A stretch of 64,000 nt of DNA from Orobanche coerulescens. Its lineage: Eukaryota; Streptophyta; Magnoliopsida; Lamiales; Orobanchaceae. A program made the translations under genes and the position numbers. The notes beneath the pieces are model-generated. The model was not told the DNA's origin. It did not search any database and saw only the letters and a program-made list of their open reading frames with translations. The stretch spans positions 111,709,501 through 111,773,500 of the forward strand of contig CM065811.1 of NCBI GenBank assembly GCA_033398695.1, in the 5' to 3' direction. Below, one piece after another: positions 2,534 to 39,234 of the stretch; position 1 is the stretch's first letter, and each line of letters starts with the position of its first letter.

Positions 2534-2799
2534 CCGTGTCGTCCGACACGGCCCGTGCCGTACTCGTCCGGAAATGCCGAAGTCTCTGCCTCAGGACCCG
2601 ACCGTGTCATCTGGCACGGCCGAGTCGAACTCTTCCGGATAAGCCAAAACCGACTGCCCCGACGCCCGACCGTGTTCCAGGACACGATCGAGTCATGCCG
2701 AGTCGCTGTCGGACGGGTCACTATCGGAAGGCCCCTCCGCGCCGAGACCGTGTCAGGCGGACACGGTCGAGTCTGTCAGACGAGTCAACCCCTATAAAT
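2534..2799 (+). promoter_or_regulatory. G1 LTR promoter: four 18-bp dyads plus TATA box
   Basis: Four inverted repeats of the form CCGTGTC-N4/5-GACACGG start at 2534, 2602, 2670 and 2748, spaced 68, 68 and 78 bp. The second and third are imperfect. A TATA box (tataaat) follows at 2793. The GC-rich dyad block stands out from the AT-rich flanks. It probably forms the U3 enhancer and core promoter; which protein binds it is unknown. Confidence 0.65.
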
Positions 2800-8830: not shown

Positions 8831-8990
8831 ACGATTGTAATATCCGGATTTATTGCGGTGTATTTCATATGTATTCAAATCATGTATTATTCGGATTGAT
8901 GGTTTTGATTTTCAGAATATGATATTTCGTGCATTGACATCATTGTACATAAGTATAGAAACTTGCAAAATTGTTCAAGCAACCTCGTGA

Positions 8991-9244
8991 TAGCGCACGC
9001 TAAGAATGTATCTTAACGCGCACTATCAAGCCATCATTAGCGCACGCTATGCAGGTATGAGTAACGTGCGCTAAGGACTCAATTATTGAGCGGGACAGCT
9101 AGCTCATGCGCCAGCGGGACATGGGTCCGGATAAGATTCCCGCTGACGCACCCGGACAAATTATGAAGTCAACCATTATTAGCGCACGCTAAGGGATGCT
9201 TAGTAGCGTGCGCTAACTTGTCAATAATGCAGAATATTATAAAT
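8991..9244 (+). promoter_or_regulatory. G2 U3 dyad array and TATA box
   Basis: 12-bp quasi-palindromes start at 8991, 9014, 9038 and 9062 and again at 9180 and 9204. Examples are TAGCGCACGCTA, TAACGCGCACTA and TAGCGTGCGCTA. Start-to-start distances are 23, 24, 24, then 24. Spacers are 11-12 bp and share no sequence. TATA (tataaat) is at 9238, 23 bp after the last dyad. The array is repeated in the 3' LTR. Confidence 0.75.
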
Positions 9245-10065
9245 GGGACAACAACCGCTTGGGCTTTCATTTCCTTCGTCTATACTTCATCTTTGAGAGT
9301 CCAGAGAGCAAGAATCTCCCTTCTAAACACTTAGAACATTTATGAGTGATCATTGAATGATTGAGTATCACTTGTGAGTGATCATTGAAGAGAAGTAACA
9401 CCTTGGAGGGGCACATAACCAACCGGAGCCGGATTACACCTTGTGGTTCAGTGATTTCGGCATATTAAGGTATGTTCAACCTATCACCGATCTTAGATTT
9501 GGATTTCCAATGGGTATGATGATCATGTTAACGAGATATTGAATTTCATTAGTGAATTATTTCAACAACTTCATGTTTAGAAGATTGGGATGTCTACAAT
9601 TACGATATTATTGTTGGAACCTTGAAGTTGGAATCCTAGTACTTCAAATGATGAGAGAAATATTCGGAAGTTAACAATCCATATGATTTATATTATCTTT
9701 GTGATCATGATTTGGAAAAGATATTGTAAGAACTTAAAGGAAGAATCATCTTAGGAAATATTCTTTCGTATAAGTCGGAATTGTTAGTTCACCTCAAGAT
9801 GAAGTCTGAATATGTATAATGATAGTAGCATCTAATACATCAACCGGAGATCACCAACTTTGCATGAGAATTGTAATCAAGATGGATTATGGTGTCATGA
9901 TGATTATACGTATATTTGCATCTTGAAATTGATATCATCATGGAGATCATTCATAAGAGTAAGAACTTGGTATTCATGGAAGTAACATGAATTATCACGA
10001 AGGATTTCATTGTTTCGAACATGGCAAGAAAGCGATTCTTGCTCAGCGATGGCGCCATGCAGAGA

Positions 10066-10281
10066 TAGCGCACGCTATGATATGCAGTTTAACGTGCGCT
10101 ATCGAGTACTAGTTATCGTGCGCTACGTTTGGTACGTAACGTACGCTAGACCATCATTCGAGTCAGTTGGCTGATCAGTGAAGTACTTACCATGCGTAGT
10201 TAGCGTGCGCTAGTCTTTGTTGTTTGCATGCGCTATCGGGTAGACGTAACGCACGCTACACAGAATACTTAGCGTGCGCTA
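10066..10281 (+). repeat. Second dyad array in G2 LTR, downstream of TATA
   Basis: Eight 12-bp dyads start at 10066, 10090, 10114, 10137, 10201, 10224, 10247 and 10270, giving steps of 24, 24, 23, then 23, 23, 23. Consensus is as in the upstream array. Because this block lies 0.8 kb past the TATA box it should be in the transcript, where neighbouring dyads could pair. In the 3' LTR the equivalent block (about 17306-17523) is partly eroded. Confidence 0.75.
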
Positions 10282-11214
10282 AGCTATTCGGGCAGATTGC
10301 AGTTTATGAACTTTTAACCGTTAATCGAATTGTTAAACATTTGTACGACGTGAGATAAATCCTATATTATTTCTTTTGTTAAGGTTTGGTCTAGTTACGT
10401 GATTGATTGAGGAGGACGATCGTCGAGTGTTCATTTCCGTGGAAGTGTTATTATTGTCTTCAAATCGAGGCAAGTACCTTAATTGTTTTACGTATTGTTG
10501 TTATACATATTGTCGTGCATGTATGTCGTTATTGTATGTCCACCTCGTGTTGGTCCGACGGGATCATCGGGGGATCTATGCTAGCGTGCGCTGGATCATC
10601 GGACGGGTTTTTCCACCACGGGTTGGTCTGACGGGATCATCGTGGGTTCTAGGCAGTGAACGCTGGATCGATGGAATTACCATGAGTATGTATTGATATC
10701 ATGTTGTGATTATCAGTTGTGTATGTTATGTTTGAGTTTCTCGTAGGAGAAGACTCGTTGGTATTTTGTTGTTTACGTTATTATTATTCACCGTGAGATA
10801 TGAATAATATGTTGTGGTACTTGTACTAGCATCGTTGTGCTAACCCCTTCGGGGGTGAACATTTTGTTTGTGTTCAGGATCCAGGAGAGCGGGGAAACAA
10901 TCACTGGGCGTATAACGACGAGGGTGCAGAGTGATGTCCCGACCGGGTTTATTTATCTGTTGTTTATTCGTTATTTCAATAAGTACTCGAGTACAAAGTC
11001 ATTTGTGATGATTTGGATTTGTTGATGTATTATTGAGTTCTGTTGAACAATTGTACTGTTTCTGTATTTGGTCAGAACTGATGTACTGTAATTCCGTTAT
11101 TTTCATTCGTTAGTACCTTTTTATGCTTGTTCAATTCTTCAGCCTTGTAGATCCTTATGTAAAGGATTTACGGCGCTGTAATATTCCCGAATATATTGGG
11201 GGTGTTACAGAATA

Positions 11215-11230
11215 TGGTATCGGAGCTAAG
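11215..11230 (+). other. G2 primer binding site (initiator Met tRNA)
   Basis: TGGTATCGGAGCTAAG lies 5 bp after the 5' LTR. Except for one base in the first 12 it matches the complement of the plant initiator tRNA-Met 3' end, the usual primer for this lineage. F1 and F2 carry the same TGGTATCGGAGC variant, so that base is a family character here rather than decay. Confidence 0.85.
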
Positions 11231-11443
11231 ATTATGGATATCTTGGCCGTTGGGTTAAAATAGGGGTCATTTATGTCTTTTGGGGTAACCGGCCGTGAAT
11301 GACATCACTGCACTGCCTACGTCTTCATGCGAACAGTGGTTGTAAGTTCCTAAACTCTATCGCGTTCTTTACATATTGTATCTCTTTATACTCGAATATT
11401 AGAACGATGTTGTTTCCTGTATATTGAGTATTTATGCTTACAG

Positions 11444-12300
11444 CATGTTGAGAGGCGGACGTGGACGTGGTCGCGGTCGTGGGCCTTGACGAAGAAATGC
11501 CGAAAGGAGGCGTCGCCTTCTAACTGAGCCGATCATAGCTCGGGCGAGCCGCGGCAATCTATTAATAATGAACCGAGATCTGCTTGTACGAGAGATCCTT
11601 CGTCAAGTGGTGAACCAGATGACTCGGTTCGCCTGTGTCGTGGACCGAATGCAAGTGGCGGTGGGACTACGGCAGGGAGAGAGAGGCAGCAAGGGTTCCC
11701 GGATATGGGAAATCGAGGTGACCGTGGTCGCAAGAAGTGGCGAAGATGCAACCACCCAAATTGACGGTATTTCGAGACTCCCACCGGATCATTGGTTAAA
11801 GGAGTGGAGAAAATCTTTGCGGAATCAAGCGCCCAGGGCAATAGGAGAGCCTCTATCGCTCAATATTTTCGATAGGGAAGCGTCGAATGGTGGGAAGCCA
11901 TCCGGCGTGTAGACCATGATGCCGATTGACAGAGTTTCGATTGATGATGGAAGCTCGATTGCCCTCGTCTGTGAGGAAGCCAAAGTTCGGGAGTTTTTCT
12001 CCGCTCGGCCTTTCCGATGTGCCGGTATCCTGTGCGATCAAGATGTTTAACCAAAGGTGGCATTTGTTCGACATCCGGTGAGCAGATGCGAAATGATGAT
12101 TCATTTCGATATGAGAATGAAACCAGAAGTCAGGTACATGTCCGGATTCGAATGTACCACACTCCGCCAATACCAGGATAAGGCGTTGGCATATGAGATC
12201 AAGGAAGCGGCCATGGAGAAATTTGCGGAAACCAAGAAACAGAAAGTCTCGGTACTTTTACGAGCACAAGAACAGTGGGGCCCGTAAGGCCCGGTCATCC
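11444..12300 (+). pseudogene. G2 gag, degenerate
   Basis: An ATG at 11444 opens a short Gly/Arg-rich start (MLRGGRGRGRGR) that stops near 11490. Beyond this, fragments in shifting frames resemble a Ty3/gypsy capsid, for example FDREAS followed by GG near 11868-11895, where capsids usually have a WW motif. I cannot see a zinc knuckle with confidence. Numerous indels make the gene unreadable. The identification rests on position after the primer site and on these fragments. Confidence 0.5.
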
Positions 12301-12729
12301 TTTCACTCTTTCAGAAACCTCCGCACCCGACTAGGAGCGGAAAGAACTTGGGCGACATCAACTATTACCGATGTTACCAGGAAATGCTTTAAGCTGCGCC
12401 CAGACGGGCACTATCGACTAATTGCCCCCTTCTGCCGTGACTTGTTTTGATTTGTGGACGAGAGGGACATCGGGCGGTGTTTTGTGAAGAGGCTGCAAAG
12501 TCTTTTAGAGCCCGTACACCACGGCCCGTCTAGAAGAAGGCCGGTATTCCACAGACGCAGCAAAGTGTTCGATGCCTCAGAATTTTGGCCGCGGCGAGGC
12601 AGAGGACAATGGGACCGAAAGGGGACATCGAGTGCGGATCTGCTCCCCACGTCTATACGAGATGAGGAGGACAGACGATCGGATGTCATTGCCGCATCAG
12701 TCTTGTCCAGATCCTTTCCCACCGATTAG

Positions 12730-15700
12730 CGTTTTATTTGATACAGAGCTACACATTCTTTCATATCCTTGTCTTGTGTAAATCGTTTGAATATTTCCGG
12801 TTTTCATGCTTGTGAACCTTATGTGGTTGGGTTACCGAGTGGAGAAAGGATTGTCGGAAATTTAGAAACTAGAAATTTCCTGTATCATTTGGAGGCAGAG
12901 AGTGGCTCTCAAACCCGATCGTGATAGAAATGCAAGGAGATGACTGATACTCGGAGACGATTGGCTTAATCGGTGCGGAGCAATTGTAAACTACCGAAGG
13001 AGGAATATCTCATTGGTCGATGATGGTTCCAGATTCTTTGAGGGATGGAAACCGGGAAGCTCGGAAAGTTGATCAAGGCGATGAAAGTCAAAATTGTTGA
13101 AACAAGGTACATCTGCACCGTGTGGTGTTACGCAATGAAGAAAGAAGACGAAATTGTGGAACTTTCATCCATTCTGTTGTGAACGAATTTCGGATGTGTT
13201 TCTGACGAGTTACGGACTACCTCCACAAAGGGATGTGGAATTTACTATTGGTGGAACCCGGAGCGACACCAATTTCTAAGGCGCCGTATCGTATGGCACC
13301 TACCGAGATGTACGAATTGAAGAAGCATCCGGAGGATTCTTGGACAAGGGCTATATTCACAGCGTTTCACCCCGGGAGCACCGGTTCTTTTGTCCGAAAG
13401 AAGGATGGATCGCTCATTGTGTATTGACTATCGAGAGTGAACAAGATGACGATTAAGAACAAGTATCTGTTGCCACGGATTGATGATTTGTTTGACCGGT
13501 TGCAAGGAGCAACAGTATTTTCTAAGATCGATCCGAGATCGGGATACCATCAATCGAGGATTAAGGAGTCTCGATGTTCCGAAATCGGCGTTCGTAACTC
13601 GCTACGGGCATTATGAGTTTGTAGTGATGCCGTTTGGTCTCACTAACGCACTTGTATTTATGCAATTGATGAACCGTGTGTTCATTGAATTTTGGATAAA
13701 TTTGTGGTTGTGTTTATTGATGACATTCTCGTGTATTCTAAGAGTTCGGAAGAACATGCGCATTTGCGGATTGTATTGGAACTCTTGAGAAACGAGCAAT
13801 TGTACGCCAAACTTTCTAAATGTGAATTCGGCTAAAGGAAGTAATGTTCCTCGGCCATGTGGTGTCGGCTAAAGGAGTCCGAGTAGATCCTCGAAGATCG
13901 AAGCAATATTGGATTGGAAGCCTCCAAAGAATGTGAAAGAGGTCCGAAGCTTCTTAGGACTTGCCGGATATTATCGTCGATTCGTGGAAGGGTTTTCTAA
14001 AATTTCCCGCCCACTTACTCGACTTCTGCAGAAAACTCAAAAGTTTGAGTGGAGCAGTCGTGTCGGACTAGTTTTGATGAGTTAAAGAAGAGATTGACGA
14101 CGGCACCGATTCTATCACTTCCGCAGGAATCGAAGGATTCATAGTTTGATGATGCTTCAAATCAAGGACTTGGGTGCGTGTTGATGCGTAATGATAAGGT
14201 GATCGCTTATGCGTCGCGACAATCGAAACCTTATGAAGTGAATTACCCGACACATGATTTGGAGCTAGCGGCAGTGGTTTTTGCCTTGAAGATTTGGAGG
14301 CATTATCATGACGGGACTCACCTGTCGATCTTTACGGATCATAAGAGTCTCAAGTACATATTCAGTCAGAAAGAGTTGAACATGCGGCAAAGAAGATGGT
14401 TGGAACTGATTAAGGACTATGACTTGGAGATTTTATATCATCCAGGCAAAGCAAATGTAGTGGCCGATGCACTTAGCCGCAAACATGTCTCTATTCAGAT
14501 GCTGGAGACGCTGACATCCCAACTTAGACTTCAACGAGAGATGATTAGTGAAGGAATTGAGGTATGGTTACAAAGAGTCCAAGGACAACTGTGCGTGATG
14601 GAGATAACATCATCTTTAACCGAAGAAATCAAATCTAGACAGGCAGATAATCCTCTGATGATTCGGTTGCATGATGAAGTGATCAAAGGAAAGGCCCCCG
14701 GATTCATAATTCATGACGATGGAGTTTTGAGATTTCAGAACCGACTCTGCGTTCCCGATGTTGATGTTCTGAAACAGACGATTATGAAGGAAGCTCATAG
14801 TTCGCCCTATTCTATCCACCCGGGCACCAGTAAAATGTATAAGGACTTGAAACAGAATTTCTGGTGGGGCAACATGAAGCAAGACGTAGCGGACTATGTT
14901 TCGAAATGCTTGACTTGTCAGCAGGTTAAGATCGAGCATCAACGGCCTGCTGGAATGTTGAAGCCGCTCCCGATTCCTGAATGGAAGTGGGAGGACATAT
15001 CAATGGACTTTATCACTAATATGCCGAAAACCAGGACAGGAATGAACATGATTTGGGTGATAGTTGATCGTTTAACCAAATCGGCTCATTTTCTAGGCAT
15101 TAAGGATACGTGGGGACCAGAGAGGTTGGCACGAGTCTTTATTTCGGAGATAGTTCGATTGCATGGTACGCCGAAGACCATTGTTTCTGATCGAGATGGC
15201 CGTTTTGTGTCTCACTTTTGGAAGGCAGTTCATAAGGCCTTGGGGACCGAATTGAACTTCAGTACAGCTTATCACCCGCAATCTGACGGACAATCTGAGA
15301 GAACTATACAAACGGTGGAAGATATCCTAAGGGCCTGTGCCTTAGATTGGTCAAACGATTGGGAAGTTCATCTACCGTTGATTGAATTTACTTACAACAA
15401 TAGTTGGCATGCTTCCATTAAGATGGCACCGTTTGAGGCATTATACGGAAGGAGATGCAGATCGCCCTTATGTTGGGACGATTCATCGGACTTGATCGGA
15501 ACAGAACCAGAGTTGATCGAGCAGACTCGAGAGAAGATAGCCTTGATTCGTGAAAGGCATTGGCGCCAGTCGCGAAATCCTATGCGGACGTCTGCCGCCG
15601 CCCATTGGAGTTGATCTTGGAGATCACGTACTTTTAAAGGTTTCTCCTACCCGGGGAATCTTTCGTTTCGGAAGGAAAGGAAAGCTGAGTCCGAGATATA

Positions 15701-16038
15701 TCGGACCATTTGAGATCCTCGAGAGAGTTGGGGAGTTGGCATACTGATTAGCATTGCCGCCGTCATTGTGCCATGTTCATAACGTGTTCCACGTATCCCA
15801 GTTGCGGAGATATATACCAGATCCCAGTCATATCATCGATTTCGGCGAGATCGAGGTCGAACAGGATGGGACGTTTGAAGAAAGACCAGTCAAGATACTC
15901 GAGAGTCGAGTTAAGCAACTGAGGAACAAGTCAATCGTTTTGGTCAAAGTTCATTGGTCACGTCATGGAACGGAAGAAGCCACCTGGGAAACGGAAGCTG
16001 ATATGAAGTCCAGATATCCCGAGTTATTTTCGTCTTGA
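12730..16038 (+). pseudogene. G2 pol: protease, RT, RNase H, integrase, chromodomain
   Basis: Protease remnants start near 12733 (VLFDT). RT fragments span 13233-13790 in several frames: APYRMAPTEM, VRKKDGSL, RYGHYEF and VMPFGLTNA are recognisable, and the catalytic aspartate region near 13720 is in a broken frame. From 14178 to 15614 a single 478-residue ORF holds RNase H ([23 protein letters not shown]), the zinc finger ([12 protein letters not shown]) and an integrase core with all three acidic motifs intact ([21 protein letters not shown]). A frameshift near 15560 and a stop at about 15746 separate the integrase C-terminus. The chromodomain (VKVHWSRHGTEEATWE) ends at 16038. Many frame breaks fall where the G1 homologue has CAG or CTG. 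Confidence 0.88.
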
Positions 16039-16060
16039 GTTTCGGGACGAAACTCCTTTT

Positions 16061-16073
16061 TAGTAGGAGAGTA
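16061..16073 (+). other. G2 polypurine tract (degenerate)
   Basis: tagtaggagagta precedes the 3' LTR, where G1 has tagggggagataa. The central G run is interrupted by a T, probably decay after insertion. Confidence 0.6.
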
Positions 16074-18441
16074 TGTAATATCCGGATTTATTGCGGTGTA
16101 TTTCATATGTATTCAAATCATGTATTATTCGGATTGATGGTTTTGATTATCAGAATATGATATTTCGTGCATTGACATCATTGTACATAAGTATAGAAAC
16201 TTGCAAAATTGTTCAAGCAACCTCGTGATAGCGCACGCTAAGAATGTATCTTAACGCGCGCTATCGAGCCATCATTAGCGCACGCTATGCAGGTATGAGT
16301 AACGTGCGCTAAGGACTCAATTATTGAGCGGGACAGCTAGCTCATGCGCCAGCGGGACATGGGTCCGGATAAGATTCCCGCTGACGCACCCGGACAAATT
16401 ATGAAGTCAACCATTATTAGCGCACGCTAAGGGATGCTTAGTAGCGTGCGCTAACTTGTCAATAATGCAGAATATTATAAATGGGACAACAACCGCTTGG
16501 GCTTTCATTTCCTTCGTCTATACTTCATCTTTGAGAGTCCAGAGAGCAAGAATCTCCCTTCTAAACACTTAGAACATTTATGAGTGATCATTGAATGATT
16601 GAGTAACACTTGTGAGTGATCATTGAAGAGAAGTAACACCTTGGAGGGGCACATAACCAACCGGAGCCGGATTACACCTTGTGGTTCAGTGATTTCAGCA
16701 TATTAAGGTATGTTCAACCTATCACCAGTCTTAGATTTGGATTTCCAATGGGTATGATGATCATGTTAACGAGATATTGAATTTCATTAGTGAATTATTT
16801 CAACAACTTCATGTTTAGAAGATTGGGATGTCTACAATTACGATATTATTGTTGGAACCTTGAAGTTGGAATCCTAGTACTTCAAATGATGAGAGAAATA
16901 TTCGGAAGTTAACAATCCATATGATTTATATTATCTTTGTGATCATGATTTGGAAAAGATATTGTAAGAACTTAAAGGAAGAATCATCTTAGGAAATATT
17001 CTTTCGTATAAGTCGGAATTGTTAGTTCACCTCAAGATGAAGTCTGAATATGTATAATGATAGTAGCATCTAATACATCAACCGGAGATCACCAACTTTG
17101 CATGAGAATTGTAATCAAGATGGATTATGGTGTCATGATGATTATACGTATATTTGCATCTTGAAATTGATATCATCCTCGGAGATCATTCATAAGAGTA
17201 AGAACTTGGTATTCATGGAAGTAACATGAATTATCACGAAGGATTTCATTGTTTCGAACATGGCAAGAAACGATTCTTGCTCGCAAGAAGAAGCGCCATG
17301 CGAGATAGCGCACGCTATGATATGCGCTTTAACGTGCGCTTCTCGAGTACTAGTTAGCGTGCGCTACGTTTAATGCGTAACGACGCTATACCATCGATCG
17401 AGTCGGTTGGTGATCGGTGAAATCTTGACCATGCGTAGTTAGCGTGCGCTAGTCTTTGTTGTTTGCGTGCGCTATCGGGCAGACGTAACGCACGCTACAC
17501 GTAATACTTAGCTGCGCTAAGCTATTGGGCGGTGCGATTTATGAACTTTTGACCGTTAATCGAATTGTTAAACATTTGTACGACGTGAGATAAATCCTAT
17601 ATTATTTCTTTTGTTAAGGTTTGGTCTAGTTACGTGATTGATTGAGGAGGACGATCGTCGAGTGTTCATTTCCGTGGAAGTGTTATTATTGTCTTCAAAT
17701 CGAGGCAAGTACCTTAATTGTTTTACGTATTGTTGTTATACATATTGTCGTGCATGTATGTCGTTATTGTATGTCCACCTCGTGTTGGTCCGACGGGATC
17801 ATCGGGGGATCTATGCTAGCGTCATTTGGATCATCGGACGGGTTTTTCCACCACGGGTTGGTCGACGGGATCATCGTGGGTTCTAGGCAATGAACGCTTG
17901 GATCGATGGAATTACCATGAGTATGTATTGATATCATGTTGTGATTATCGATTGTGTATGTTATGTTTGAGTTTCTCGTAGAGAAGACTCATTGGTATTT
18001 TGTTGTTTACGTTATTATTATTCACCGTGAGATATGAATAATATGTTGTGGTACTTGTACTAGCATCGTTGTGCTAACCCCTTGAGGGTGAACATTTTGT
18101 TTGTGTTCGGGATCCGGGAGAGCGGGAAACAATCACCGAACTGTATGACGATGAGGGTGCAGAGTGATGTCCCGACCGGGTTTATTTATCATTGTTTATT
18201 CGTTATTTCAATAAGTACTCGAGTACAAAGTCATTTGTGATGATTTGGATTTGTTGATGTATTATTGAGTTACATTGAACAATTGTATCTTGTTCGTATT
18301 TGGTCAGAACTGATGTACTGTAATTCCGTTATTTTCATTCGTTAGTACCTTTTTATGCTTGTTCAATTCTTCAGCCTTGTAAATCCTTATGTAAAGGATT
18401 TACGGCGCTGTAATATTCCCGAATATATTGGGGGTGTTACA
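16074..18441 (+). repeat. G2 3' LTR
   Basis: It pairs with 8836-11209 and ends directly against the acgat target duplication. The first 1.1 kb or so shows only a handful of differences from the 5' copy. The rest, from about 17265, differs at many sites, mostly where the 5' copy reads CAG or CTG. TATA and upstream dyads are intact. Confidence 0.95.
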
Positions 18442-18446
18442 ACGAT

Positions 18447-20223: not shown

Positions 20224-20272
20224 AATTAGTTATCTACTCGAGAAATTAATCTATTAGAAAAGTACCATTCGC

Positions 20273-20500
20273 TAGCGCGCGCTAGCTTTATCCTTTTAAC
20301 GCACGCTAACTTCCCACTCCTATACGATTTTGTCTTCGATAGCGTACGCTAACCCCTTATCACTTACGTACGCTAATTAAAATCCTCTTATTTCGATATA
20401 TGCTACTGGATAGTCCAGTAAGCTACCTATATATTCATAACGTATGCTATTCCTACATTCTTTGCGTATGCTAATTAAACCATTTCATTTCCCTATATAA
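20273..20500 (+). promoter_or_regulatory. Dyad pairs and TATA box between pol and extra ORF of copia A
   Basis: Three pairs of 12-bp dyads start at 20273/20297, 20340/20364 and 20438/20462. Each pair is exactly 24 bp apart with an unrelated 12-bp spacer (for example TAGCGCGCGCTA then TAACGCACGCTA). A TATA-like tatataaac at 20494 follows 32 bp after the last start, and the extra-ORF ATG is 150 bp further on. The layout copies that of the LTR promoters, so this is probably an internal promoter for the downstream ORF. Confidence 0.6.
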
Positions 20501-20643
20501 ACCCTGAATAGCCCAGAAAATCATTCTCCATTTCATAACGCACGCAATCGCTCAGATCCCCTTTCACAGCAAGAACCCTAGCCAAAATCCGATTCATATA
20601 ATCCCGATTTCTTTCTTCAAATCTTTCAATTCCTTTCATATTC

Positions 20644-21897
20644 ATGTTGAGCAAGGGCAGAAAAGCTATGGAAAAGGCTTACAAAAGCACAAAACGTACC
20701 CGCGAACCACAATATGATGCATCTCGCTTCTTGTCATATACAGCTTCCAAGGTATTTTCGGAAATTCTCCCTCAGGAACACTTGACGGACTGCTACTACT
20801 TCAATTTCCACAGCCTGGAACGGGTGAATGTTGTTATTTCGGATTTCTTCTCTTCTATTGAAATTTCCCATTTTGTTGAATGTAAAGAACCTATCTTTCC
20901 CGAGTTAGTTCGCGAATTCTACGCGAATATTCATATTGATGAGAGTGAAGGATCCTCATCCTTAGTTTTAGGGAGTTTGGTTGGCGGAACTGTAGTGAAA
21001 GTCTCTTCGGAGATTTTGACTCAATTATTTGGTTTGTCGTCGGATGGCTTTTCTTGTTCCGGGAAATCGATCACTGAAAAATCTGGAGTTACCAAGCTTG
21101 ATGTCAAGGAATTAATGAGCTCGAAATCCGTCATCGACATCACCGATGAGGTCTTCGAGAACAACGATTTTGGGATTAATATTCGACTCCTTTCGGTCGT
21201 ACTCACCAAGTGTATAATGCCTAAGGTCAACACGCAGCATAAGTTGGTTGGAATAGACAAACATGTGGTGTACCGAATGCTAAATAATGACAGGATTGAC
21301 TTTGCCGCGATTGCCACAAGCTAGATGAAAGTCAAGGGCGACCTCTTTCGGTCAAAGAATTTCACTTCATGGTGCCGCAAGGCTGGAATGCCATACGGCT
21401 CCATCCTAACGGCGATCTTCAAATTTCATCAAGTAGATTTAACAAAGGACAAAGCCGTTCCCGTATCCATCGGCCATGATATTTCCGATTACTCTCTCAA
21501 GGACAAGCATTATGTACGAACGATCAACCGGCGCTGGATTCTCTTTCCGTACCTTAATGAAGACGATCAAGTGGAGAAAGGGACTCGAATGCCGACACCG
21601 TAAGAGTGAATTACTCGACAAGGGCCGCACAGCCTTCGAGAAATGCAAACAGGAGAGTTTGTGAGGAAGCCTACTTCTAAGGGCAAACGTCTGATGAGAG
21701 AGACACTTGACGAGGAAGAGGAGAGTGACCTCATTTCCCGGATCCGCAGCATCGAGACTTCACAGCTGGAGATCCGTGAAGATGTTCGTTCTCTCCGCTC
21801 CGAGGTTCAAGGAGTGCGCGGGCTACTTGAAGATTTTATTCATTTCACTCATCCGTCTTTCCCGCTTCCACCCTCCTCATCCGAGCACGCACCTTAG
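20644..21897 (+). pseudogene. Copia A extra ORF downstream of pol (SIRE 'env-like' position)
   Basis: A single frame runs from ATG 20644 to 21897, broken by TAG at 21322, TAA at 21601 and TGA near 21607. The first 300 or so residues resemble the conserved 'putative plant transposon protein' domain of such ORFs (FLSYTASKVFSEI, FPELVREFYANIH). The C-terminal part has a coiled coil (ISRIRSIETSQLEIREDVRS) and a Pro/Ser-rich tail. I see no signal peptide or transmembrane segment, so calling it an envelope protein is not supported. The copia C counterpart is at 49017-52197. Function is unknown; a TATA box 150 bp upstream suggests separate transcription. Confidence 0.75.
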
Positions 21898-22277
21898 TTT
21901 TTAGGACATTGATTCTCGATGTAGCGAACTTTTATTTCATATGTTTTGATGTCGTGTGCTTCGGTCATTTCTGTGTAATGTTTGGATCATTTTCAATGAA
22001 ATGCCCATTCCCTTCGGTTGGTTGTCTTGGTTTTCGATGCTCTTCATGATTATTGGTTATGTTCGGTTCGTTAATGTTAATTATGTGTTCTGCTTGATAT
22101 TTTGTTATACGCAACATTTCAGGGGGAGTCCTTTTTGTTAATGTCAAAAAGGGGGACAAACACTCCAAAACCGAAACATACTAACATATCGAACAAGTTA
22201 CTTTGATTCGAAATTTTTTAAACATTTTTGCATGTATATATTAAATGTTTTGACATCATCAAAAAGGGGGAGATTTT
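21898..22277 (+). other. Copia A 3' untranslated region and polypurine tract
   Basis: AT-rich noncoding sequence follows the extra ORF. Two purine runs, caaaaagggggac near 22145 and tcaaaaagggggaga at 22258-22273, share the same core. The second is adjacent to the presumed LTR start and is the likely plus-strand primer; the first may be an upstream duplicate. Confidence 0.6.
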
Positions 22278-22539
22278 TGACTTAAAGTATTTTGATGATG
22301 ATTATATTCAAAACATTTAAACAAAATCTATCCCATCGAGCTATTACATTGAAGGAAAATCATGTTCCTAGCGCACGCTACAGATAGACGTACCTGGGCT
22401 TTCAGGCCCGCCGGTTTTGGCCCTAAACCGGCCCTAAGTCAACGGTTTTAGCCCGGGACCGCCGGTCAACGGGCCCGAACCGGACCGGGACCGAAAAGCT
22501 AGGGTCGGGCTAGGGTCGGGGGAATTGGAACCGCAGACC

Positions 22540-25500
22540 TGTAATACCCGGATTTTTAGTATAAATTTTTCGCGTTATTTTATCTGAGTATACTGTACAG
22601 TTTGGCATCTATACAGTATGGATAAAATAAATTGAGAACCGAGACAGTTATACTGGTGTGATTATCGTTTTTGATTGACAAATATATTCAGGATATGTTG
22701 TATCAGGTTGAACTGATTTGGATATCAGGTATACCGTATGAGAATATTTTTGGATTCAATATGTGTATTCAGTATGCCGTATGTTTGTATTTTGTACGTC
22801 GAGACGTCGGACAGGAACAGTTGGATTTTTGGCTAAGTATAAAAGCCATTACGTACGTTAAGCCTTGGAGCTTACGTACGTAAAATGTGTTAGCTTACGT
22901 ACGTTATATAGTGTACATAACGTACGTAACAAGAGGAATCGGACAGTGGGGCCCGTGGTCGGCAGCTTTCGGCGCAGATGTGGACAGGTGAGTCAACGGA
23001 CGGAGTTACGACGTTATACGGTGTATTACGTGCGTAATCGAGTATTATACTGTAGCAAGTCAACGTACGTATTACGTACGCAACGGATTAAGTGTTACGT
23101 ACGTTACGGAGTAGCCGGTCGAGTCGTGGCCGAGCATGGCCGGTCGTGACTCGTTGGAATGGCCGAGCATGGTCGGCAGTGATTCGTGGGGGTGGCCGAT
23201 CACGGTCGGCAGTGACTCGCTGGGGGCTAGGACTGGCCGATTACGTACGTAAGGCAGTGGCCGGTTACGGCCATAAGGGCCAGTTACGTACGTAAGCCAA
23301 CTGCCGGTTACGTACGTAATGGTTCCCGGCCAGGCGATGGCGTGCCATGGCGATTCGACGTAAGGCGATGGCGATTACGTACGTAACGTGCAGTGGTCCG
23401 CCTATTTAAAGGCCTGGACCGAGTCATCCGGCCATTTTCATGTTTTCTCTTCGTTTTTTGGCGATTTCTTTATCAAAGTGGATGGATTTGAGTAATATCA
23501 TCATCTAGCAACATGTTTTGGAAGTTTTATTCATGGATTAACATCATCTCCACCCGGATCGAAGGTAAGAACACCTAAACTTTTGGTTTTTGGATGTTCT
23601 TGAGATTTCTTGGTGTTTTGGCCGATTTGCTTCGTTTTGATTCAGATTGTTGATTGAAATTGATTGTAAACTCGTAATCATTCAATACTCTTGAAGTTTT
23701 GTGGAAAGAATTCGAGTATTTATTTGAATAATCGATTGAATTGGACTATGCCTTCAAAGTGTTCGATGAAATGTCTCAATGAGTAGAACTTGGAAAATTC
23801 TACACGTTTTCGTATGAATGATGGTTGAAATGATATTGTTGTTATGATTCTTGGTATTTACGAGAATTTTGTTAAGGGAAGATAATGAATTGGTGATCAA
23901 ATGATTCGATTATGTTGTTATGATTATGGAATCGTAGTATTCTCGATGTTCTTGGTGGTTTGTTGCGATTCATGATGTTATGAGAAGTATATGTTGAAGG
24001 ACATGATTGTATACACCTTGAATTATGATTAAGAGTTGTTTAGATGTTAGAAAACATCGGGCTATGTTGTTTTATGGATTATGAACGTGAATTTGTATAA
24101 TTCGTGTTCTTGAAGAACCCTTGAGTTACATGTTATGATTTTGGAAGGATTTCGGATAATTTTGGAATGTGATTATTCATGATAATAATCGGTAAATTGT
24201 TTTCTACGAATTTACAAGTATGAACAAGAAGGAGTTTTGTCTTCGTATTTGGAGTTGAAGTTGGAATCGAATATGTTATAAAATCCTTAATGTCGAGATG
24301 AATTGATCATTGATTTGATGAATACGTTTTAAAGTGTTGGTGTTTTGGATATGAATATGGAATATTCACATTTAGAACTAAGTTATGTATCTTGGTACAA
24401 TATTCGTATAGGAATACGAATATGATTTCGAGTTTGATGAGAATTATTATTCATGTTTGAATTTGGAAATTCATGCTTATTGAATAAGTGTTCAATTCGG
24501 ATAATGGAATTATTTGAAACCCTTGGAATATGGTTATCTATGATGTTGAATTAATCGGATTGTCCGGATTGATGATGATAACCGGTAATTGGTTTATATT
24601 ATGAATTTACAAGGAGGAAACATGTATCCGTATTTAAGATTGAATTTGGAATCGGTAATGTTAGACCCTTGTTGGTTTAAATTGATTATTGATATGATTA
24701 TCGGATTATGAATTGTGTTATGGTTTTAAATTCGTGATCGATTGATTTGGTTGTTCGGATTTGTGTCTAATCGGGATATGGTGGAACCGTTGGGTTTATT
24801 GATCGGTTATATTGATTATTGAGTTGCGACTTGTATCGTGGATATGGGTTCGTATTTGTTTGAGTTGTATTGTTTGGTTTTGTATATGATCGAGGTTTCG
24901 TTGAACCGTTGAGTTTGTTGGTTGAGTATGTCGGTTATTGATTTTTATCGAATGTGTGTTAATCGGTTATTGCAATAGGTTGATATATTTTGATCGTGGA
25001 TTATGACCGTTGTGTTGCGGTTGAAGTCGAAGAGTTCGTAGATTGCTTTTGGTCGGGGCTAAGGAGCTCGTAGACAAAGGCAATGGATTTTGGTAACGGC
25101 TTCGTGGTATCGGTATCGAGGCAAGTTTATACTTGTTCAGTTTATAATATTTGATGAATGGTTTCGTTTTCATTTCATTTATAATTCATATAGCAATGTT
25201 GTTAGAAATGTAAGTTGTCGGGATAATGGTTTGTATATCGTGCTCTGGTTGTATTAAATCATAAGGTATATGATTTAATTGTGTTCAGGGAAGACGTGAG
25301 TTATTTTTGGTCAAGGATATAGAATATCGGATATCGAGGATAGTTATCGTGATGACATAAGTATCGGGATAAAGGTTTTTGGTATTTAATGGATGGTACC
25401 TTATTTGAGATTATTTGTATAACTCTGTATTCGTTCAGGGATGTTGTTCGTGGAAAGGATGTTGTCTTCGGCTTGAGGTAATCTAAGTATTTGTTCAGTC

Positions 25501-27163
25501 ATGTGGATAATTAGTATGTTGAGTTGTTGTATATGTTGAGGTTTCGTATAATGAGTTTCGTATCGGTTATTCGTTGAGGGATGTTGATCCCAGGACTGTT
25601 GTATTGAGATCGTAGATCGTGTTGGTCATTCATTTGGGGATGATGATCCCAGGATTGATGTTTTGGATATTGACTAGTCATGTCGACTTTTCATTGTCGG
25701 TCTGTTGTTGTTCACTTCGGTGAGTCTTTTGATCCTTATTGGATATGTGTTTCTTTGAGTTTCGTTTTCATGTTGCATCGTGACATATCTCGAGTCATAT
25801 CTGCGTGCCGATTGGTTATTGTGTAGGATTTTTAGCCGGGCACATGATGGTTATGTGTTGATATTTCCGCATTGAACCGTGCACACGAGACGTAGTTCGT
25901 GAGGCTAATTAGGTACAAGACCACACGTGTATTTGATCGATACCCGGGGTGGCTTGTGCACGGACACATTTCCGGATCGGGCGTACTATGACGTCCATCT
26001 TTGAGCTATATTGTTTGGTCGTTCATCCTCCATTTATGGTTGGGTATGTTCGACAGTTTGTGACTGGTTGTTCATACGCCCGAGGGGTATGTTCGACAGT
26101 CGGAGTTATTTCTTGAGATCCATTATTGTTGATCATTTGGAGTTTACCTTGATGATGGTATTCTCAATTATCGTGATCCTTTATTGGCCGTATTGGAGTT
26201 ATCATGTCGATGATATTCTCAGTTGATTTATCGGTTGATCTGGTTATTGATCGTATAAGCATTCGCACTATACGTCGATGTTCGGGATTTGTTATCATTA
26301 TCATATGGTAGTTGATCTACAGATATGTTGTGTACTGTTGGTTTATCCAGGTTGAGTTTTGATTGTGTAATCCGATGGACAGAATTTGGCACGGATGAAT
26401 TATTTCATGATTATGAGTTATGATGATGTTTTGAGGATTGTTGGTATTTTTGAAATTCAATACAGATAATTGTTGTTAAGTTCATTTCGTCATTCGAGGA
26501 TGCGAAATGTGGATTATGGTAAGGATTGGATTATTATGGATTGGTAAGGTTATAACAGTAAGATTTACTTTGGTAGTATTCTTACTATATTATTACATTG
26601 GTATGTAATTATTTATGATGATGTGATCGGTATCATTATTGAGTATTGTGGCTGACCCCGTCGTGGGCTTTATTTTTAGGTACTCGAAGATCGAGTTAGT
26701 AGCGGTCGTGAAGGGATGAGCTTCCCGATGTGATACTGGCGGTGGCATGTTTTTGAGTATTGAGTATTTATTTCTGGTTGTTTTATTTCCGCTGCAAATG
26801 TGTATTTTAAACTGCTTTATCCGCTGTGTGTGTGTATTTCAAAATGGCCTTTTTGGCATTTTACGAACTTGGGTTATTTTTTGTCAAACTCTTTTTCCCG
26901 AACTATTTTATCGGTACGTTTAAGCGGCGTCTTAACGTACATTTTAAACTGTCGAGATTTGGCACTTCGCCTTGTATTTTCAAATGGTATTTTATGACGG
27001 TATTTCAAAATTAGGCTTTTGAAAATATTTGAGTATTTAAAATATTACCGTCATCGGCCTTTTGGCGCTTTTGAATTGGTTTTGTAAACGGTTTTTAGCC
27101 TGGTGGGTTCCGGCGCGGAACCCACGGCGCTGTAATATCCCGGATGGTTTTGGGGGTGTTACA
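22540..27163 (+). repeat. Solo gypsy LTR S1 (4.6 kb)
   Basis: It starts TGTAATACCC and ends GGGGGTGTTACA, flanked by a perfect 5-bp target duplication agacc (22535-22539 and 27164-27168). There is no primer site, coding region or second LTR inside, so this is a solo LTR left by recombination between LTRs. It shares termini and layout with the Tekay-type LTRs here. TATA (tatttaaa) is at 23403, which leaves about 3.7 kb downstream of the promoter. A splice-donor-like aaggtaag lies at 23563. Confidence 0.9.
22849..23410 (+). promoter_or_regulatory. S1 dyad array (TTACGTACGTAA type) and TATA box
   Basis: 12-bp palindromes start at 22849, 22872, 22895 and 22918, exactly 23 bp apart. Others are at 23026, 23061, 23072, 23095, 23241, 23265, 23284, 23308 and 23375. 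Most read TTACGTACGTAA or one base off. The TATA-like tatttaaa at 23403 follows the last copy by 17 bp. Spacers are not conserved. Confidence 0.75.
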
Positions 27164-27492
27164 AGACCGGCGGTTCAGGCCCTCCGGTCCTAAAAGGCCC
27201 ATCGGTTTGCATCGGCCGGCCCAGGCCGGCCAGCGGGCCTAACGGCTATTCGAGAAAAAATGGCGGATCCAGTGGATCGATCACGCCAATTGCCAACGGC
27301 TATGTCCTTCAAGGAGCCGTTGGCAGCCCCCTTCCCCACCCCCCAACGTCCCCATTAATCCCCCTTTTCCCTACCCATCCCCACTATAAATACTACATCT
27401 TCCTAACTCAAAATTCACCAATAATCACACTCTAATTCTCTCTAAAAATTCAATCTCTACTCTCTCTACTATACTCTCTATTTACTATCTCC

Positions 27493-29848
27493 ATGTCTAC
27501 CTCAAAGAACAACACTAACAAGGGCAAGGGCAAGGCCATTGAACTTGGCCAACGAAGTGGAGGAAGAAATTTTCAACCTCAAACTCAAAGGCCTAGAAGG
27601 GCCGATTTGGCGGAGGAAATTTCTAGACAAGTCGCCGAACGAATTCAAGCCGAAGAAGATGCCCGATTTGAAGAAATGGTTCATACGATGGAGAGCACGG
27701 GATACGAATTTCGTGGCTCAACAAATGATGATGAACATGAAGAGGACAAAGAGCACGAAGAAGACGAACAAAACCAACCTCCTCCTCCGCCAACAAGTAA
27801 GCCTAAGCCTCTCAAGTCCGAAATCTTTGTTAAACATTTTAAAAGAGAATTGGCTCCTATCAACGAAGGAGAACCTCCTTTATCCGATGGTCGAAAGAGA
27901 TTCATTGCTTATTGCAACTATTGCACAAAGCACTACAAATGGATCGAGAAGGGAGGCTACGGAACACTACAAAGGCACATGGAGGGGTTTCATCCATTCG
28001 AGTATGGAATATCTACTACTCAAACGCAAATTCGAGGTACTGCTAGTTCAAATTCGGCGACGGGTATGTCTTCTTCCGCTTTATTTAAATTTGAAAAAAA
28101 TCGATATGAAGATGCTTGTGCTAGATATTGTGCCATGGAAAAACAACCTTTTAATTATGCGGATAGAATAACGTATGAAGCTTCTTATAAAGATGGTTTG
28201 GGGCCTAATGTTAGCAAGGTAGCTAGAACTCAAATGCTTAAGAGAATTAGGAGACAATGCTTTGACAAAAACAAGATTTAATGAAATATTTAGTTCGTTT
28301 GTCTCAAAAAGTTTCTATTTGTGCCGATGTTTGGACCGATGCTTATAATAAAAATAGTTACATGGGAATTACTTGTCATTAGATTGATGCAAAATGGATT
28401 ATGCAAAAACGTTTGATTGCCTTTAGGGAGTTTGAAGAGCCTCACACGGCTCAAAATATTGCTTTAATTATTATTACGGTTTTAAATGAGTATTGTTTGG
28501 TTAACAAGGTATTTTCCGTTGGTTTTGATAATGCATCGGCGAACACCACTAGTATTCCGGAACTTGTTGAAGCATGTGCACCATCATTTGAAGGAAAATA
28601 TTTTCATTCTAGATGCATTTGTCATATTTTAAATTTATGTGTTCGAGATGCGCTTAGTATTTTTCAAGTTTCCGTTGTTCCTATTAAAAATGCCGTTAAG
28701 TATTTGCACAAATCAAAAACATTGGGGAAAAAATGGCAAAAATATTGTCGTGCAAAGGGTATTGTTTATACTTGTTTCAAATTAGATGTATCTCATCGTT
28801 GGAACTCTACTTATGAGATGATTAATAGTACACTAGAGTATAAGAGTTATTTATGCGATTTTTTTAGGAAAGTGTTCTCAAACATGCAATTAGTTCTTAA
28901 TGAGTGTATTTGGTATTCATGTATGGATTTGTATCATTTGTTAAAAGTTTTCATAATGCTACTAAACAATTATCGGGTGTTTATTATTGTACTTCCGTTA
29001 AAGTGTTGGAACATTGCATGTATATTGCCTTGTCTTTTAAGAGTTGTTTTAGTAGGCCAAACATGCAAGGTGTGATTTATTTTATGGTTCAAAAATGGCT
29101 CAAGTATTTTAGGGAGATTCCTATGGTTTTCTTACTTGTTAAGTGCTTAGATCCTAAATGGAAGTATGATGGTGTTTGTCAAATGCTTGGTATTTATTAT
29201 GATGCTTTTGCTCAAATGGACTTGAGTGATGTTGTAATTGATGGTGAAGGGGTCTTCTTTGATCTTCCTTCCGTGCCACAAATCAAGATAGATCTTGATA
29301 GGAGTTTGAGATCTATTTTTCAAGAATATAGATTAAAACATGGTAGTGAGTTTCCTTCTTCTACAATGCCTTCATCTATGATGCCTTCATGTGATTTTCC
29401 TTTTGAGATGAATGAAAGTGATCCTTTAGTTCAACAAATGCATGGAATGATGCAAAATAGAAGCAATTAACTTCCAATGGGGCAAGGTAATAGTGAATTA
29501 GATATGTTCTTGCAAACTCGTTTTGTATTTGGTGTTGAAGATAGTGGTCCGTCGATCGATGTGTTAAAGTGGTGGTCGAAGAGAGAGGAGTACCCAATAC
29601 TCTCCATCATTGCAAAGGAGTTATTTGCCGTCCCGGCATCCACCGTGTCCGTAGAACAAGCCTTTAGCATCGGAGGACTTATGCTAGATCAAAGAAGATC
29701 AAGGATGAAGCCGGCGAACATTGAAGCTACCATGTTGCTCGATGATTGGTGTAGGGCCGACCTTATATCTCAAGAACCGGAATGGGACGATGCAAATGAG
29801 AGCGAAGATGAAGCCTTCACCGAGACGGATCGATCGGATGTGGAGTAG
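27493..29848 (+). pseudogene. hAT transposase (zf-BED, hAT C-terminal dimerisation)
   Basis: The first ORF (27493-28281) has a basic N-terminus, an acidic linker and a BED zinc finger (YCNYCTKHYKW, then LQRHMEGFH). After a frameshift near 28270, the catalytic core follows in another frame with a TAG at about 28380: CADVWTDA carries the first aspartate, and VGFDNASANT and CICHILNLCV are typical RNase H-like fold motifs. A second frameshift near 28900 and a TAA at 29468 precede the dimerisation domain (WWSKREEYPILS, FAVPASTVSVEQAFS, MKPANIEATMLL). The intact protein would bind the terminal repeats and cut and paste the element. Two frameshifts and two stops make it inactive. The domain order matches the RICESLEEPER/DAYSLEEPER group. 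Confidence 0.88.
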
Positions 29849-30381
29849 AGAGCTCAAGTCCTTTATTATTATTATTTTTTCATTTCAAGAATTCAAGTGT
29901 AAAACTTCTTAAATTGTGCTTAACTTATTTGTTGTAATTTTCCTCATTTTTAATGCAAAATTATTGTGTCCTTATTTATTTGCAAAATTATTGTGTCCTT
30001 ATTCATTTGTAATTTTCCTCATTCTTAATGCAAACTTATTTGTTATAATTTTCCTTATTCATTTTTCAACAATTTAATGAGTTTTTAAATATTTAAAAAA
30101 AATCAAAACATTAAGAATTATCATTTTCTATTCATAAAAGTAATAAATATACAAGAATAAAATAAAAAAAATAATAATAAAAGTTAAACAAAAAAAAAAA
30201 AAAGCTGGCGGCCGGCCGTTTTAGCCTGACTACGGACCGGCGGGTTTCTAGCCCGGCACGGGCGGTCGGGCTAGTTTACGGTCCGGGCTCCGTCCCTTGT
30301 TTTGGGGACCGAGGACCGCCGGTTCGAGGCCCAAAACCGGCGGTTTCGGCCCGGCAGCACGTCTAGCTAGAGACTGCATGG

Positions 30382-31213
30382 TAGCGCATGCTATCGAGGG
30401 CAAGTCATCTGCAGTCATGCCAGTAATCTACAGTCAAGTTGGAGTCACCTAATGGATAGCGCACGCAAAGCCTACAATATCAGTGCATGCTAAGTTGTCA
30501 AACTTAGTGCACGTTAACATCTATTTACAGCGCTCGCTATCGCATTTATCTTAATCAAGGCAGAGAGTCAGTGAGGTCAGGATAGAAAAAGGAAAATCCT
30601 CTGCACATGCTACGGAAGTATACTTACGTACGCTATTCAGAGGTCTTAGCACACGTTACATGTCAAACCTTGCGCACGCTACCGGAAATCATATTTGTAG
30701 TCCAGTAGGCTCTGGATTCAAATCAAGGAAGCAATTACGTACGCTAAACAAGCTAACGTACGTTATCTGGAAAAGTTGTAGCGCACGCTACAATACATTT
30801 GTTAGCGCACGCTAAGCGTTCGAAATCCTACCGTTAGTCAACTTATCCGTTGGAACGCAATGGTCAAAAAGGAGATCCGTAAAATCAAGAAAGCTAATAT
30901 AAAATAATACTAGCGCACACTAATGTATCAGTACTAGCGCACGCTAAGTACTTTTTTATCCGTTGGAAAAGATACGTTGGGGAGACAAACCAACAAGATT
31001 CAACAGTCAAAAGTGAAGACCTATTGACCGACAATAACGCACACTACAGAAGACCGACTAGCACACACTAGACGTGTATTATGACTGTTGGTACAGTTTA
31101 ATGACCGTTCAGTTCAGTCAAGTCAAAGCTCGATAACGCACGCTATGAAGGATTATTAGCGCACGTTAATAATACGTTTTTCACCATATGAAGAAGGACT
31201 TGACACTATAAAT
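30382..31213 (+). promoter_or_regulatory. Copia A U3 dyad array and TATA box
   Basis: At least 19 12-bp quasi-palindromes lie upstream of a TATA box (tataaat, 31207). Starts with regular steps are 30457, 30481, 30505, 30528; 30601, 30624, 30647, 30670; 30779, 30803; 30911, 30935; 31035, 31059; 31134, 31157. Steps are 23 or 24 bp. The copy at 22369, left of the hAT, is exactly 24 bp from 30382 once the hAT and one target duplication are removed. Typical copies are TAGCGCACGCTA, TTACGTACGCTA and TAACGCACACTA. Confidence 0.78.
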
Positions 31214-39076: not shown

Positions 39077-39234
39077 CCTTATATAGCCGGACACTGCCGA
39101 ACGCTTACGTACGTAACCGGCCGGGCCCTTACGTATGTAACCGGCCATGGCCGAAATCTCTGCCCAGAAATTCCGGCATCGTTACGTACGTAACCGGCCA
39201 AGTCTTACGTACGTAACCGGCCTTACGTACGTAA
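39077..39234 (-). promoter_or_regulatory. F1 LTR dyad array and TATA box
   Basis: TTACGTACGTAA-type 12-mers start at 39105, 39129, 39182, 39205 and 39223 (steps 24; 23, 18). In the element's direction they lie upstream of the TATA box ctatataagg (39077-39087). Same motif as in S1. Confidence 0.68.

What the first reader, a model, noticed from the sequence alone, without database searches (positions are those of the whole stretch)
8991..31213. Same 23-24 bp phased dyad arrays in copia and gypsy LTR promoters
12-bp quasi-palindromes (consensus about TWRCGYRCGYWA) occur in the U3 of gypsy elements G2, S1 and F1 and of copia A. In each they are separated by 11-12 bp of unconserved sequence, so starts are 23 or 24 bp apart in runs of 2-4. 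These elements belong to different superfamilies and their LTRs are otherwise unrelated. The conserved spacing with unconserved spacers argues for constraint on motif plus phase, not simple tandem duplication. The motifs are rich in CpG and should decay fast if methylated, yet they persist. Possible roles: binding sites for a dimeric host factor with cooperative spacing, targets of 24-nt siRNA chromatin, or RNA pairing. I do not know of a described equivalent.
Basis: partly seen in the sequence, partly recalled or inferred. Interest (0 to 1): 0.85.

Follow-up and report, generated by a model that had tools for sequence, protein, structure and literature searches.

The report
Phased binding-site arrays in retrotransposon promoters
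In a large, repeat-rich plant genome related to broomrapes, two unrelated kinds of jumping genes carry the same short mirror-image DNA word, repeated every 23 to 24 letters next to their start signals and found over two million times genome-wide, which looks like a docking array for an unidentified DNA-binding protein that controls them.

Summary
The arrays are real. TWRCGYRCGYWA occurs 53 times in the window (shuffled mean 0.18), with 21 phased neighbours against 0. Array spacings are 23 or 24 bp in 33 of 37 cases. Genome-wide there are 2,337,506 exact sites against 21,793 for the reversed control.

Two assignments change. 'Gypsy F1' is the right half of copia A's 3' LTR, split by a hAT whose removal restores a 24-bp step. 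The 20273-20547 array is not U3: it precedes a third ORF. So one copia carries the word at two promoters.

Arrays end 16-38 bp upstream of a TATA-like box in 5 of 6 promoters. Spacers are little conserved. Neighbours pair no better than non-neighbours, so RNA hairpins are unlikely.

Best reading: close-packed sites for a dimeric DNA-binding protein, probably host-encoded, used by gypsy and copia promoters. No binder is known. A copia-encoded factor (ORF3, VANC-like) is the boldest open rival.

The parts
8836..18441 (+). Gypsy element G2 (LTRs 8836-11209 and 16074-18441), TSD ACGAT 8831-8835/18442-18446, inserted in copia A pol
   Evidence: LTR pair 96.6% identical; RNase H and integrase domains in ORF 14178-15614; TSD read
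8991..9215 (+). G2 5' LTR array a: 6 dyads in runs of 4 and 2 (steps 23,24,24 / 24), TATAAA 22 bp downstream
10066..10281 (+). G2 5' LTR array b: 8 dyads in two runs of 4, downstream of the TATA (an exception to the promoter-upstream rule)
16229..16453 (+). G2 3' LTR copy of array a
17306..17519 (+). G2 3' LTR copy of array b, partly degraded by small indels
20273..20547 (+). Copia A internal array: three pairs at 24 bp plus one single, between pol end and ORF3; TATATA starts 20 bp after the third pair
20644..21324 (+). Copia A ORF3 (226 aa, then a stop), Transposase_32-like; relatives annotated in Orobanche
   Evidence: PF20167 E 3e-9, below the curated cut-off; 8 homologues, 31 with a profile
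22369..22380 (+). First dyad of the copia A 3' LTR, left of the hAT
22385..30365 (.). hAT-like element (terminal inverted repeat starting TAGACGT) splitting copia A's LTR array; carries solo LTR S1
   Evidence: TIR, 8-bp duplication and joined flanks; weak zf-BED match below cut-off
22849..23386 (+). S1 array: 11 exact dyads, mostly TTACGTACGTAA-like, in a gypsy-type solo LTR 22540-27163 (TSD AGACC); TATTTAAA 16 bp downstream
   Evidence: TSD read
30382..31168 (+).
39105..39257 (-). S2 array of TTACGTACGTAA dyads in a minus-strand gypsy-type LTR (36971-39791); TATATA 19 bp downstream on the minus strand
5708..5785 (+). Related array of another word, TTACGGCCGTAA (one copy TTATGGCCGTAT), 4 dyads at 22-bp steps in a third LTR type (Athila-like by recall, not tested); TATAAA about 129 bp downstream

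Best explanation
The arrays are promoter-proximal binding sites, packed end to end, for a protein that binds the 12-bp dyad as a dimer with a footprint of about 23 bp. LTR retrotransposons of two superfamilies (gypsy G2, S1, S2 and copia A) use the same factor to drive transcription of the LTR and, in copia A, of a separate internal gene. Shown: the word, the spacing, little-conserved spacers, TATA proximity, use at two promoters of one element, huge genome-wide abundance of the word. Inferred: that a protein binds, that it binds as a dimer, that it activates, and that it is a host transcription factor rather than an element's own protein. The 23-24 bp step is best read as one dimer footprint, so neighbouring dimers touch; at about 2.2 helical turns they would sit about 80 degrees apart, not on one face.
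For: Enrichment and phase in the window. Genome-wide 2,337,506 sites against 21,793 for the reversed control, and 41 of 99 consecutive distances of 22-24 bp among the first 100 listed places (contig C1, 0.48 Mb). The array ends 16-38 bp from a TATA-like box in 5 of 6 promoters (4 of 6 with strict TATAWA) against 5.5% (strict) and 6.4% (loose) of random LTR positions. The two copia A promoters share little but the word: 13 of the 15 six-mers most enriched in both lie in it or overlap its edge. S1 and S2 differ at about half their positions outside motifs (194 of 397 alike) yet both keep TTACGTACGTAA arrays beside the TATA. Analogue: a phage contig carries 8 such dyads at 22-23 bp steps just upstream of a gene with a match to an Arc-like repressor family (E 1e-4; its best match is a family of unknown function).
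Against: No binder, expression or methylation data. G2 array b lies about 830 bp downstream of the TATA. In copia A 18 of 27 centres are CA and none TG, so the sites share an orientation; that points to descent by duplication or a direction-dependent function. Spacers in G2 (0.343 against 0.298, p 0.011) and S2 (0.576 against 0.376, p 0.0075, three spacers) keep some similarity. Since the G2 insertion motif bases have not changed less than the rest (8 of 180, against 9 of 115 in spacers and 59 of 2079 elsewhere). The ORF3 TATA was counted from the third pair; counted from the last single motif, there is none (then 4 of 6 loose, 3 of 6 strict); the 5708 array has none within 50 bp. Further TATA-like matches lie elsewhere in these LTRs, some inside or before an array (20428, 22838, 30898). 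With motifs masked, S1 and S2 motifs do not fall in identical alignment columns. The gypsy LTRs are related, so the sharing between superfamilies rests on about two independent cases in the window.
Confidence: 0.55

Rival explanations
1. The factor is encoded by the elements: copia A's ORF3 protein binds the dyads in its own LTR and its own promoter, as a trans-activator or anti-silencing factor like VANC, and the gypsy elements borrow it.
For: The array sits directly upstream of ORF3 and in the LTR of the same element. ORF3 belongs to a family with 29 Orobanche entries among 31 hits; a relative shows a basic stretch (P0015) and the model of P0009 a C-terminal helix of about 50 residues. VANC targets are short motifs in tandem arrays in the elements' noncoding DNA, and VANC6 motifs also occur in a transposon unrelated to VANDAL, AT9TSD1 (PMC5735166, passages). 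In both phage analogues the array adjoins a gene; one of these has a match to an Arc-like repressor family.
Against: No DNA-binding domain found: Transposase_32 is the only clear match (an HTH_3 hit at E 0.26 in one relative is not significant), no PDB fold match with E below 0.001, model confidence moderate (pLDDT 68). The parallel case, copia B with its own ORF3, shows only a weak shared word (GCTGTA 4 and 4, which I do not count as significant for the number of 6-mers possible).
Confidence: 0.2
2. The dyads recruit silencing: a host protein bound to them brings Pol IV or methyltransferase, as REM factors do at siren loci, and the arrays are hot spots of 24-nt siRNA.
For: Host factors that read DNA sequence to recruit Pol IV exist (PMC12270911, PMC8752594, passages). 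Motif CpGs decay to TG/CA (13 of 54 in copia A), as expected if methylated.
Against: The CLSY3 siren motif contains no CG (PMC8752594). Elements gain nothing obvious from keeping silencer sites, so conservation across lineages is hard to explain. The 23-24 bp step equals siRNA length only by number; a phage array has 22-23 bp steps.
Confidence: 0.12
3. Neutral tandem duplication: the arrays are old minisatellites with no function.
For: Same orientation of centres in copia A; residual spacer similarity in G2 and S2; no slower change of motifs between the two G2 LTRs.
Against: Motif identity within arrays 0.80 against about 0.35 in spacers; mixed 23 and 24 bp steps; the same word in gypsy and copia LTRs between which only motif-sized matches were found; arrays beside TATA boxes.
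Confidence: 0.08
4. RNA-level function: neighbouring dyads pair as hairpins in the transcript.
For: Two of three stretches tested fold better than shuffles (z -5.2 for G2 array a, -3.3 for the ORF3 promoter).
Against: Neighbours are no more complementary than non-neighbours (G2 9.70 against 9.75 of 12, copia A 8.12 against 8.15, S1 11.20 against 11.00, S2 11.67 against 11.57); a 221-base part of the copia A LTR has z -1.1. Any array of palindromes folds well.
Confidence: 0.05

Closest known systems
VANC target motifs of Arabidopsis VANDAL transposons (PMC5735166, PMC10398659; passages read)
   Same: Short word repeated in noncoding DNA of mobile elements; word differs between related elements; VANC6 words also found in AT9TSD1, which is not related to VANDAL
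   Different: Words there are YAGTATTAY and AGTTGTCC/AC, neither palindromic nor containing CG; VANDALs are DNA transposons (recalled); binder known there, unknown here
Heat response element of ONSEN and stress elements of Rider in LTR promoters (PMC3907296, PMC6762207; passages read)
   Same: LTR promoter carries sites for host stress factors
   Different: [quoted passage not shown] here the word has two CpGs, spans gypsy and copia, recurs at 23-24 bp steps and numbers in the millions
Tto1 13-bp cis-element in the LTR promoter (seen only as a reference title in PMC10794571); Tnt1 BII repeats (recalled)
   Same: Short activator sites in the LTR promoter
   Different: Single family; no shared word across superfamilies known to me
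CLSY3/REM siren-locus motif (PMC8752594, PMC12270911; passages read)
   Same: Sequence-specific cue at siRNA loci
   Different: Rare (223 occurrences in Arabidopsis) and without a CG; no array at 23-24 bp in the passages I read
Phage operator-like array on contig L002
   Same: Eight TTACGTACGTAA-like dyads at 22-23 bp steps
   Different: Contig of a viral collection with phage-like genes; lies just upstream of a small gene with an Arc-like repressor match; presumably convergent

Membership tests
Promoter-proximal cis-regulatory repeat of LTR retrotransposons | Lies in U3 or another promoter, close upstream of a TATA box | tested here: met
   5 of 6 promoters within 50 bp with a loose TATA, 4 of 6 with TATAWA; background 6.4% and 5.5%. 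G2 array b is an exception
Promoter-proximal cis-regulatory repeat of LTR retrotransposons | Activates transcription through a bound factor | not testable with these tools
   No expression or binding data
VANC-type anti-silencing target array | Short motif arrayed in noncoding DNA of the element | tested here: met
VANC-type anti-silencing target array | Element encodes the cognate DNA-binding protein | tested here: inconclusive
   ORF3 follows one array, but no DNA-binding domain or fold was recognised
VANC-type anti-silencing target array | Binding causes loss of methylation over the element | not testable with these tools
   No methylation data
CLSY3/REM siren motif | Motif without a CG dinucleotide | tested here: not met
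   The dyad holds two CpGs; the paper says its motif has none
Tandem repeat (minisatellite) | Whole unit, spacer included, alike between copies | tested here: not met
   Spacers at chance in three of five arrays, slightly above in G2, clearly above in S2; overall about 0.35 identity against 0.80 in motifs
RNA hairpin array | Neighbours preferentially complementary | tested here: not met
   four element sets

The most novel reading that the evidence does not exclude
A large part of the LTR retrotransposons of a 3.6-Gb parasitic-plant genome, gypsy and copia alike, is wired to one trans-acting factor through about 2.3 million copies of one dyad word set in arrays of roughly 23-24 bp, and that factor is the copia elements' own ORF3 protein (VANC-like), which the gypsy elements exploit. 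Related gypsy LTRs can swap the word (TTACGTACGTAA to TAGCGTGCGCTA) while keeping the spacing and the place next to the TATA.
Probability: 0.15. Interest if true: 0.92.

Novelty: new variant of a known kind. Interest (0 to 1): 0.72.

Why it matters
If right, one DNA-binding protein acts on promoters of unrelated transposon superfamilies across a giant genome, which would make the question 'what lets certain retrotransposons take over a plant genome' testable with one pull-down. It would also be a rare case where motif, spacing and promoter position are constrained together over very many sites, giving a natural data set on how a binding array evolves, and a possible anti-silencing or activation system outside the Arabidopsis VANDAL elements.

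Tried and rejected
Shared RNA folding: folds are strong but neighbours do not pair better than non-neighbours. A shared word in copia B's LTR and ORF3 promoter: only GCTGTA, weak. ORF3 structure: first model unusable (pLDDT 38), second moderate (68), no fold match; the 11 PDB sequence hits up to E 1 all lie in the C-terminal part, with the best at E 0.014. Known plant factor sites: from recall, NAC (CGT[AG] core), BZR (CGTGCG) and SPL (GTAC) each fit some variants but none fits all; not tested. Literature: the 12-mers themselves (2 papers for one word; 33 papers for six words or word parts, of which 20 were listed and none of these 20 concerns plant LTRs by title or shown abstract; 13 were not seen); LTR promoter motifs (listings); Orobanche repeats (passages of PMC4381496, where 'motif' occurs 0 times). 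Relatives of the gypsy ORF in viral contigs: none. Phased pair of the TAGCG-type word in prokaryote genomes: 0. A parity rule (runs of 2 and 4) looked striking by eye, but scored runs also have 1s and 3s, so I do not claim it. Genome-wide counts of the paired word and random 10-kb samples were planned but not answered.


Full report
What the window is. It is a nest of plant LTR retrotransposons. Gypsy-type domains (RNase H, integrase zinc finger, a weak chromodomain in the element at 1-2118) and copia-type domains were found. Copia A rests on gag_pre-integrs and Pol_BBD at 7618-8193 and on 65% DNA similarity of 18774-19439 to the two other copia pol regions; its last pol ORF, 19567-20223, matched no Pfam family. 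S1 and S2 have no coding evidence that I tested: G2's LTR 3' end is 79-82% alike to those of S2 and a third family, and locus L004 matches both S1 (81%) and S2 (86%). The closest named relatives of copia A's third ORF are proteins of Orobanche hederae, O. minor and O. gracilis (7 of 8 hits; 29 of 31), so the host is probably in Orobanchaceae; the species is not determined. The assembly has 3,646,015,169 bases and the window is C11:111709501-111773500. A study of Orobanche repeats reports much gypsy Tekay and the presence of SIRE1/Maximus copia elements (PMC4381496, passages); filing the elements here under those clades is my inference from LTR ends and layout.

The observation. The word occurs 53 times exactly, against a mean of 0.18 (maximum 3) in 200 local shuffles, and 21 consecutive pairs lie 22-25 bp apart against none in any shuffle. 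A test that ignores the outer letters (CGNNCG only) peaks at 23 and 24 bp (12 and 13 pairs). Degraded partners of strict motifs lie at 23 and 24 bp (8 and 6 of 50 sites) and rarely elsewhere (0-3 per offset). Array steps are 23 or 24 in 33 of 37 (G2 3' LTR left out, members with up to 3 mismatches included).

Beyond the window. The one answered genome query gave 2,337,506 exact sites, 107 times the 21,793 of the reversed pattern, or one per 1.56 kb. Many are presumably copies of the same families, so they are not independent. In the first 100 places listed (contig C1, 74,643 to 551,256) 41 of 99 consecutive distances are 22-24 bp. One stretch there (C1:82861-83213) has 11 dyads with at least 10 of 12 matches, mostly of TAGCGTGCGCTA type, with steps 24, 51, 23, 64, 23, 21, 23, 64, 24, 24, 12 bp from a minus-strand TATA. 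DNA about 640 bp away (C1:81390-82224) matches a gypsy-type LTR at window 56969-57802 at 91%. The 3' ends of that LTR family are 81-82% alike to S2's, whose word is TTACGTACGTAA. I read this as related LTRs with different words and the same layout; it rests on few copies.

Re-drawing the elements. Between 22385 and 30365 lies a hAT-like element with inverted ends (TAGACGT...) and an 8-bp duplication with one mismatch. Joining the flanks gives TAGCGCACGCTA-12 bp-TAGCGCATGCTA, a 24-bp step. Inside the hAT sits S1 (22540-27163, duplication AGACC, no second LTR in the self-comparison), so probably a solo LTR. The array at 20273-20547 lies between the end of copia A's pol and ORF3, with a TATATA at 20494. 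One copia element therefore uses the word at two separate places, and 13 of the 15 six-mers most enriched in both lie in it or overlap its edge.

Position. The array ends 16-38 bp upstream of a TATA-like box in 5 of 6 promoters (G2, copia A LTR, copia A ORF3, S1, S2), or in 4 of 6 with strict TATAWA; the background in LTRs is 5.5% strict and 6.4% loose per 50 bp. S1's box is TATTTAAA, a variant I added. For ORF3 I measured from the third pair; the last single motif lies after the TATA, and from there no box follows. Other TATA-like matches exist in these LTRs. The 5708 array has its TATA at about 129 bp. G2's array b is downstream of the TATA and does not fit.

Constraint or copying. Motifs within an array are 80% alike, spacers about 35%. 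With each array's own composition as null, spacers are at chance in copia A (both arrays; p 0.85 and 0.10) and S1 (p 0.12), slightly above in G2 (p 0.011) and clearly above in S2 (p 0.0075). S1 and S2 are 49% identical outside motifs in a motif-masked alignment, and their motifs then fall near, not in, the same columns. An ordinary alignment gives, with S2 as reference, 36 of 36 motif letters alike (12 more opposite gaps) against 100 of 185 elsewhere, and with S1 as reference 39 of 45 against 97 of 176; motifs help to guide that alignment. For the two C1 copies the gain is smaller (S2 against L004: 38 of 45 against 162 of 205). The two G2 LTRs show no slower change in motifs since insertion, as expected of dead copies.

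CpG. The window is not CpG-depleted (observed/expected 0.96), so persistence of CpG words is no argument by itself. In copia A 13 of 54 motif CpGs are TG or CA and none is anything else; the fixed outer T and A changed in 3 of 54 (my count from the rows). That fits methylation-driven decay after insertion but does not prove it.

Mechanism. I favour a dimeric factor with a footprint of one step, binding end to end beside the TATA. RNA pairing is disfavoured. A host factor is the simplest reading because gypsy and copia both use it. A copia-encoded factor is attractive because the array abuts ORF3 and because VANC shows such systems exist, but ORF3 gave no DNA-binding domain or fold.

Analogue. 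Pattern searches of viral contigs, meant to find plant relatives, found two phage-like loci instead. One has eight TTACGTACGTAA-like dyads (11 or 12 of 12) at 22-23 bp steps ending 25 bp before a 91-aa gene; its best family is phrog_13890 of unknown function (E 1e-8), the second an Arc-like repressor family (E 1e-4), and two ribbon-helix-helix Pfam models match below cut-off (E 0.02). The other has two dyads 23 bp apart just upstream of a gene without a clear family. They suggest that the layout can arise as an operator array; they are not relatives.

Limits. One window, one answered genome query, no expression, methylation or binding data, and no second species.

Noticed in passing
L002:5761-5931 and 5957-6232: Phage-like contig with eight TTACGTACGTAA-like dyads at 22-23 bp steps directly upstream of a 91-aa gene with a match to an Arc-like repressor family (phrog_582, E 1e-4; best match phrog_13890, unknown function)
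   Followed up: partly
L001:12696-12730: Phage-like contig with TAGCGTGCGCTA and TAGCGCACGCTA 23 bp apart just upstream of a 299-aa minus-strand gene without a clear family
   Followed up: partly
window 5708-5785: Different dyad word TTACGGCCGTAA, four copies at 22-bp steps, in a third LTR type
   Followed up: partly
window 2533-2770: Gypsy LTR upstream of a TATA at 2793 with another word, CCGTGTC facing GACACGG, in several copies
   Followed up: no
window 16900-18440 against 9660-11209: The 3' LTR of G2 differs from the 5' LTR by small indels and odd short replacements, also inside motifs; may be assembly error
   Followed up: no
window 20407-20430 and 30695-30715: A second near-shared stretch, about TAGTCCAGTARGCT, in copia A's ORF3 promoter and LTR, read by eye
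   Followed up: no
window 31809-32054: Diverged repeats of AACATCGGTT-type sequence, reminiscent (from recall) of a DNA transposon end
   Followed up: no
window 49098-50360: Copia B also has a third ORF with a weak Transposase_32 match (E 6e-4, below cut-off) and a basic stretch followed by a proline-rich tail
   Followed up: partly
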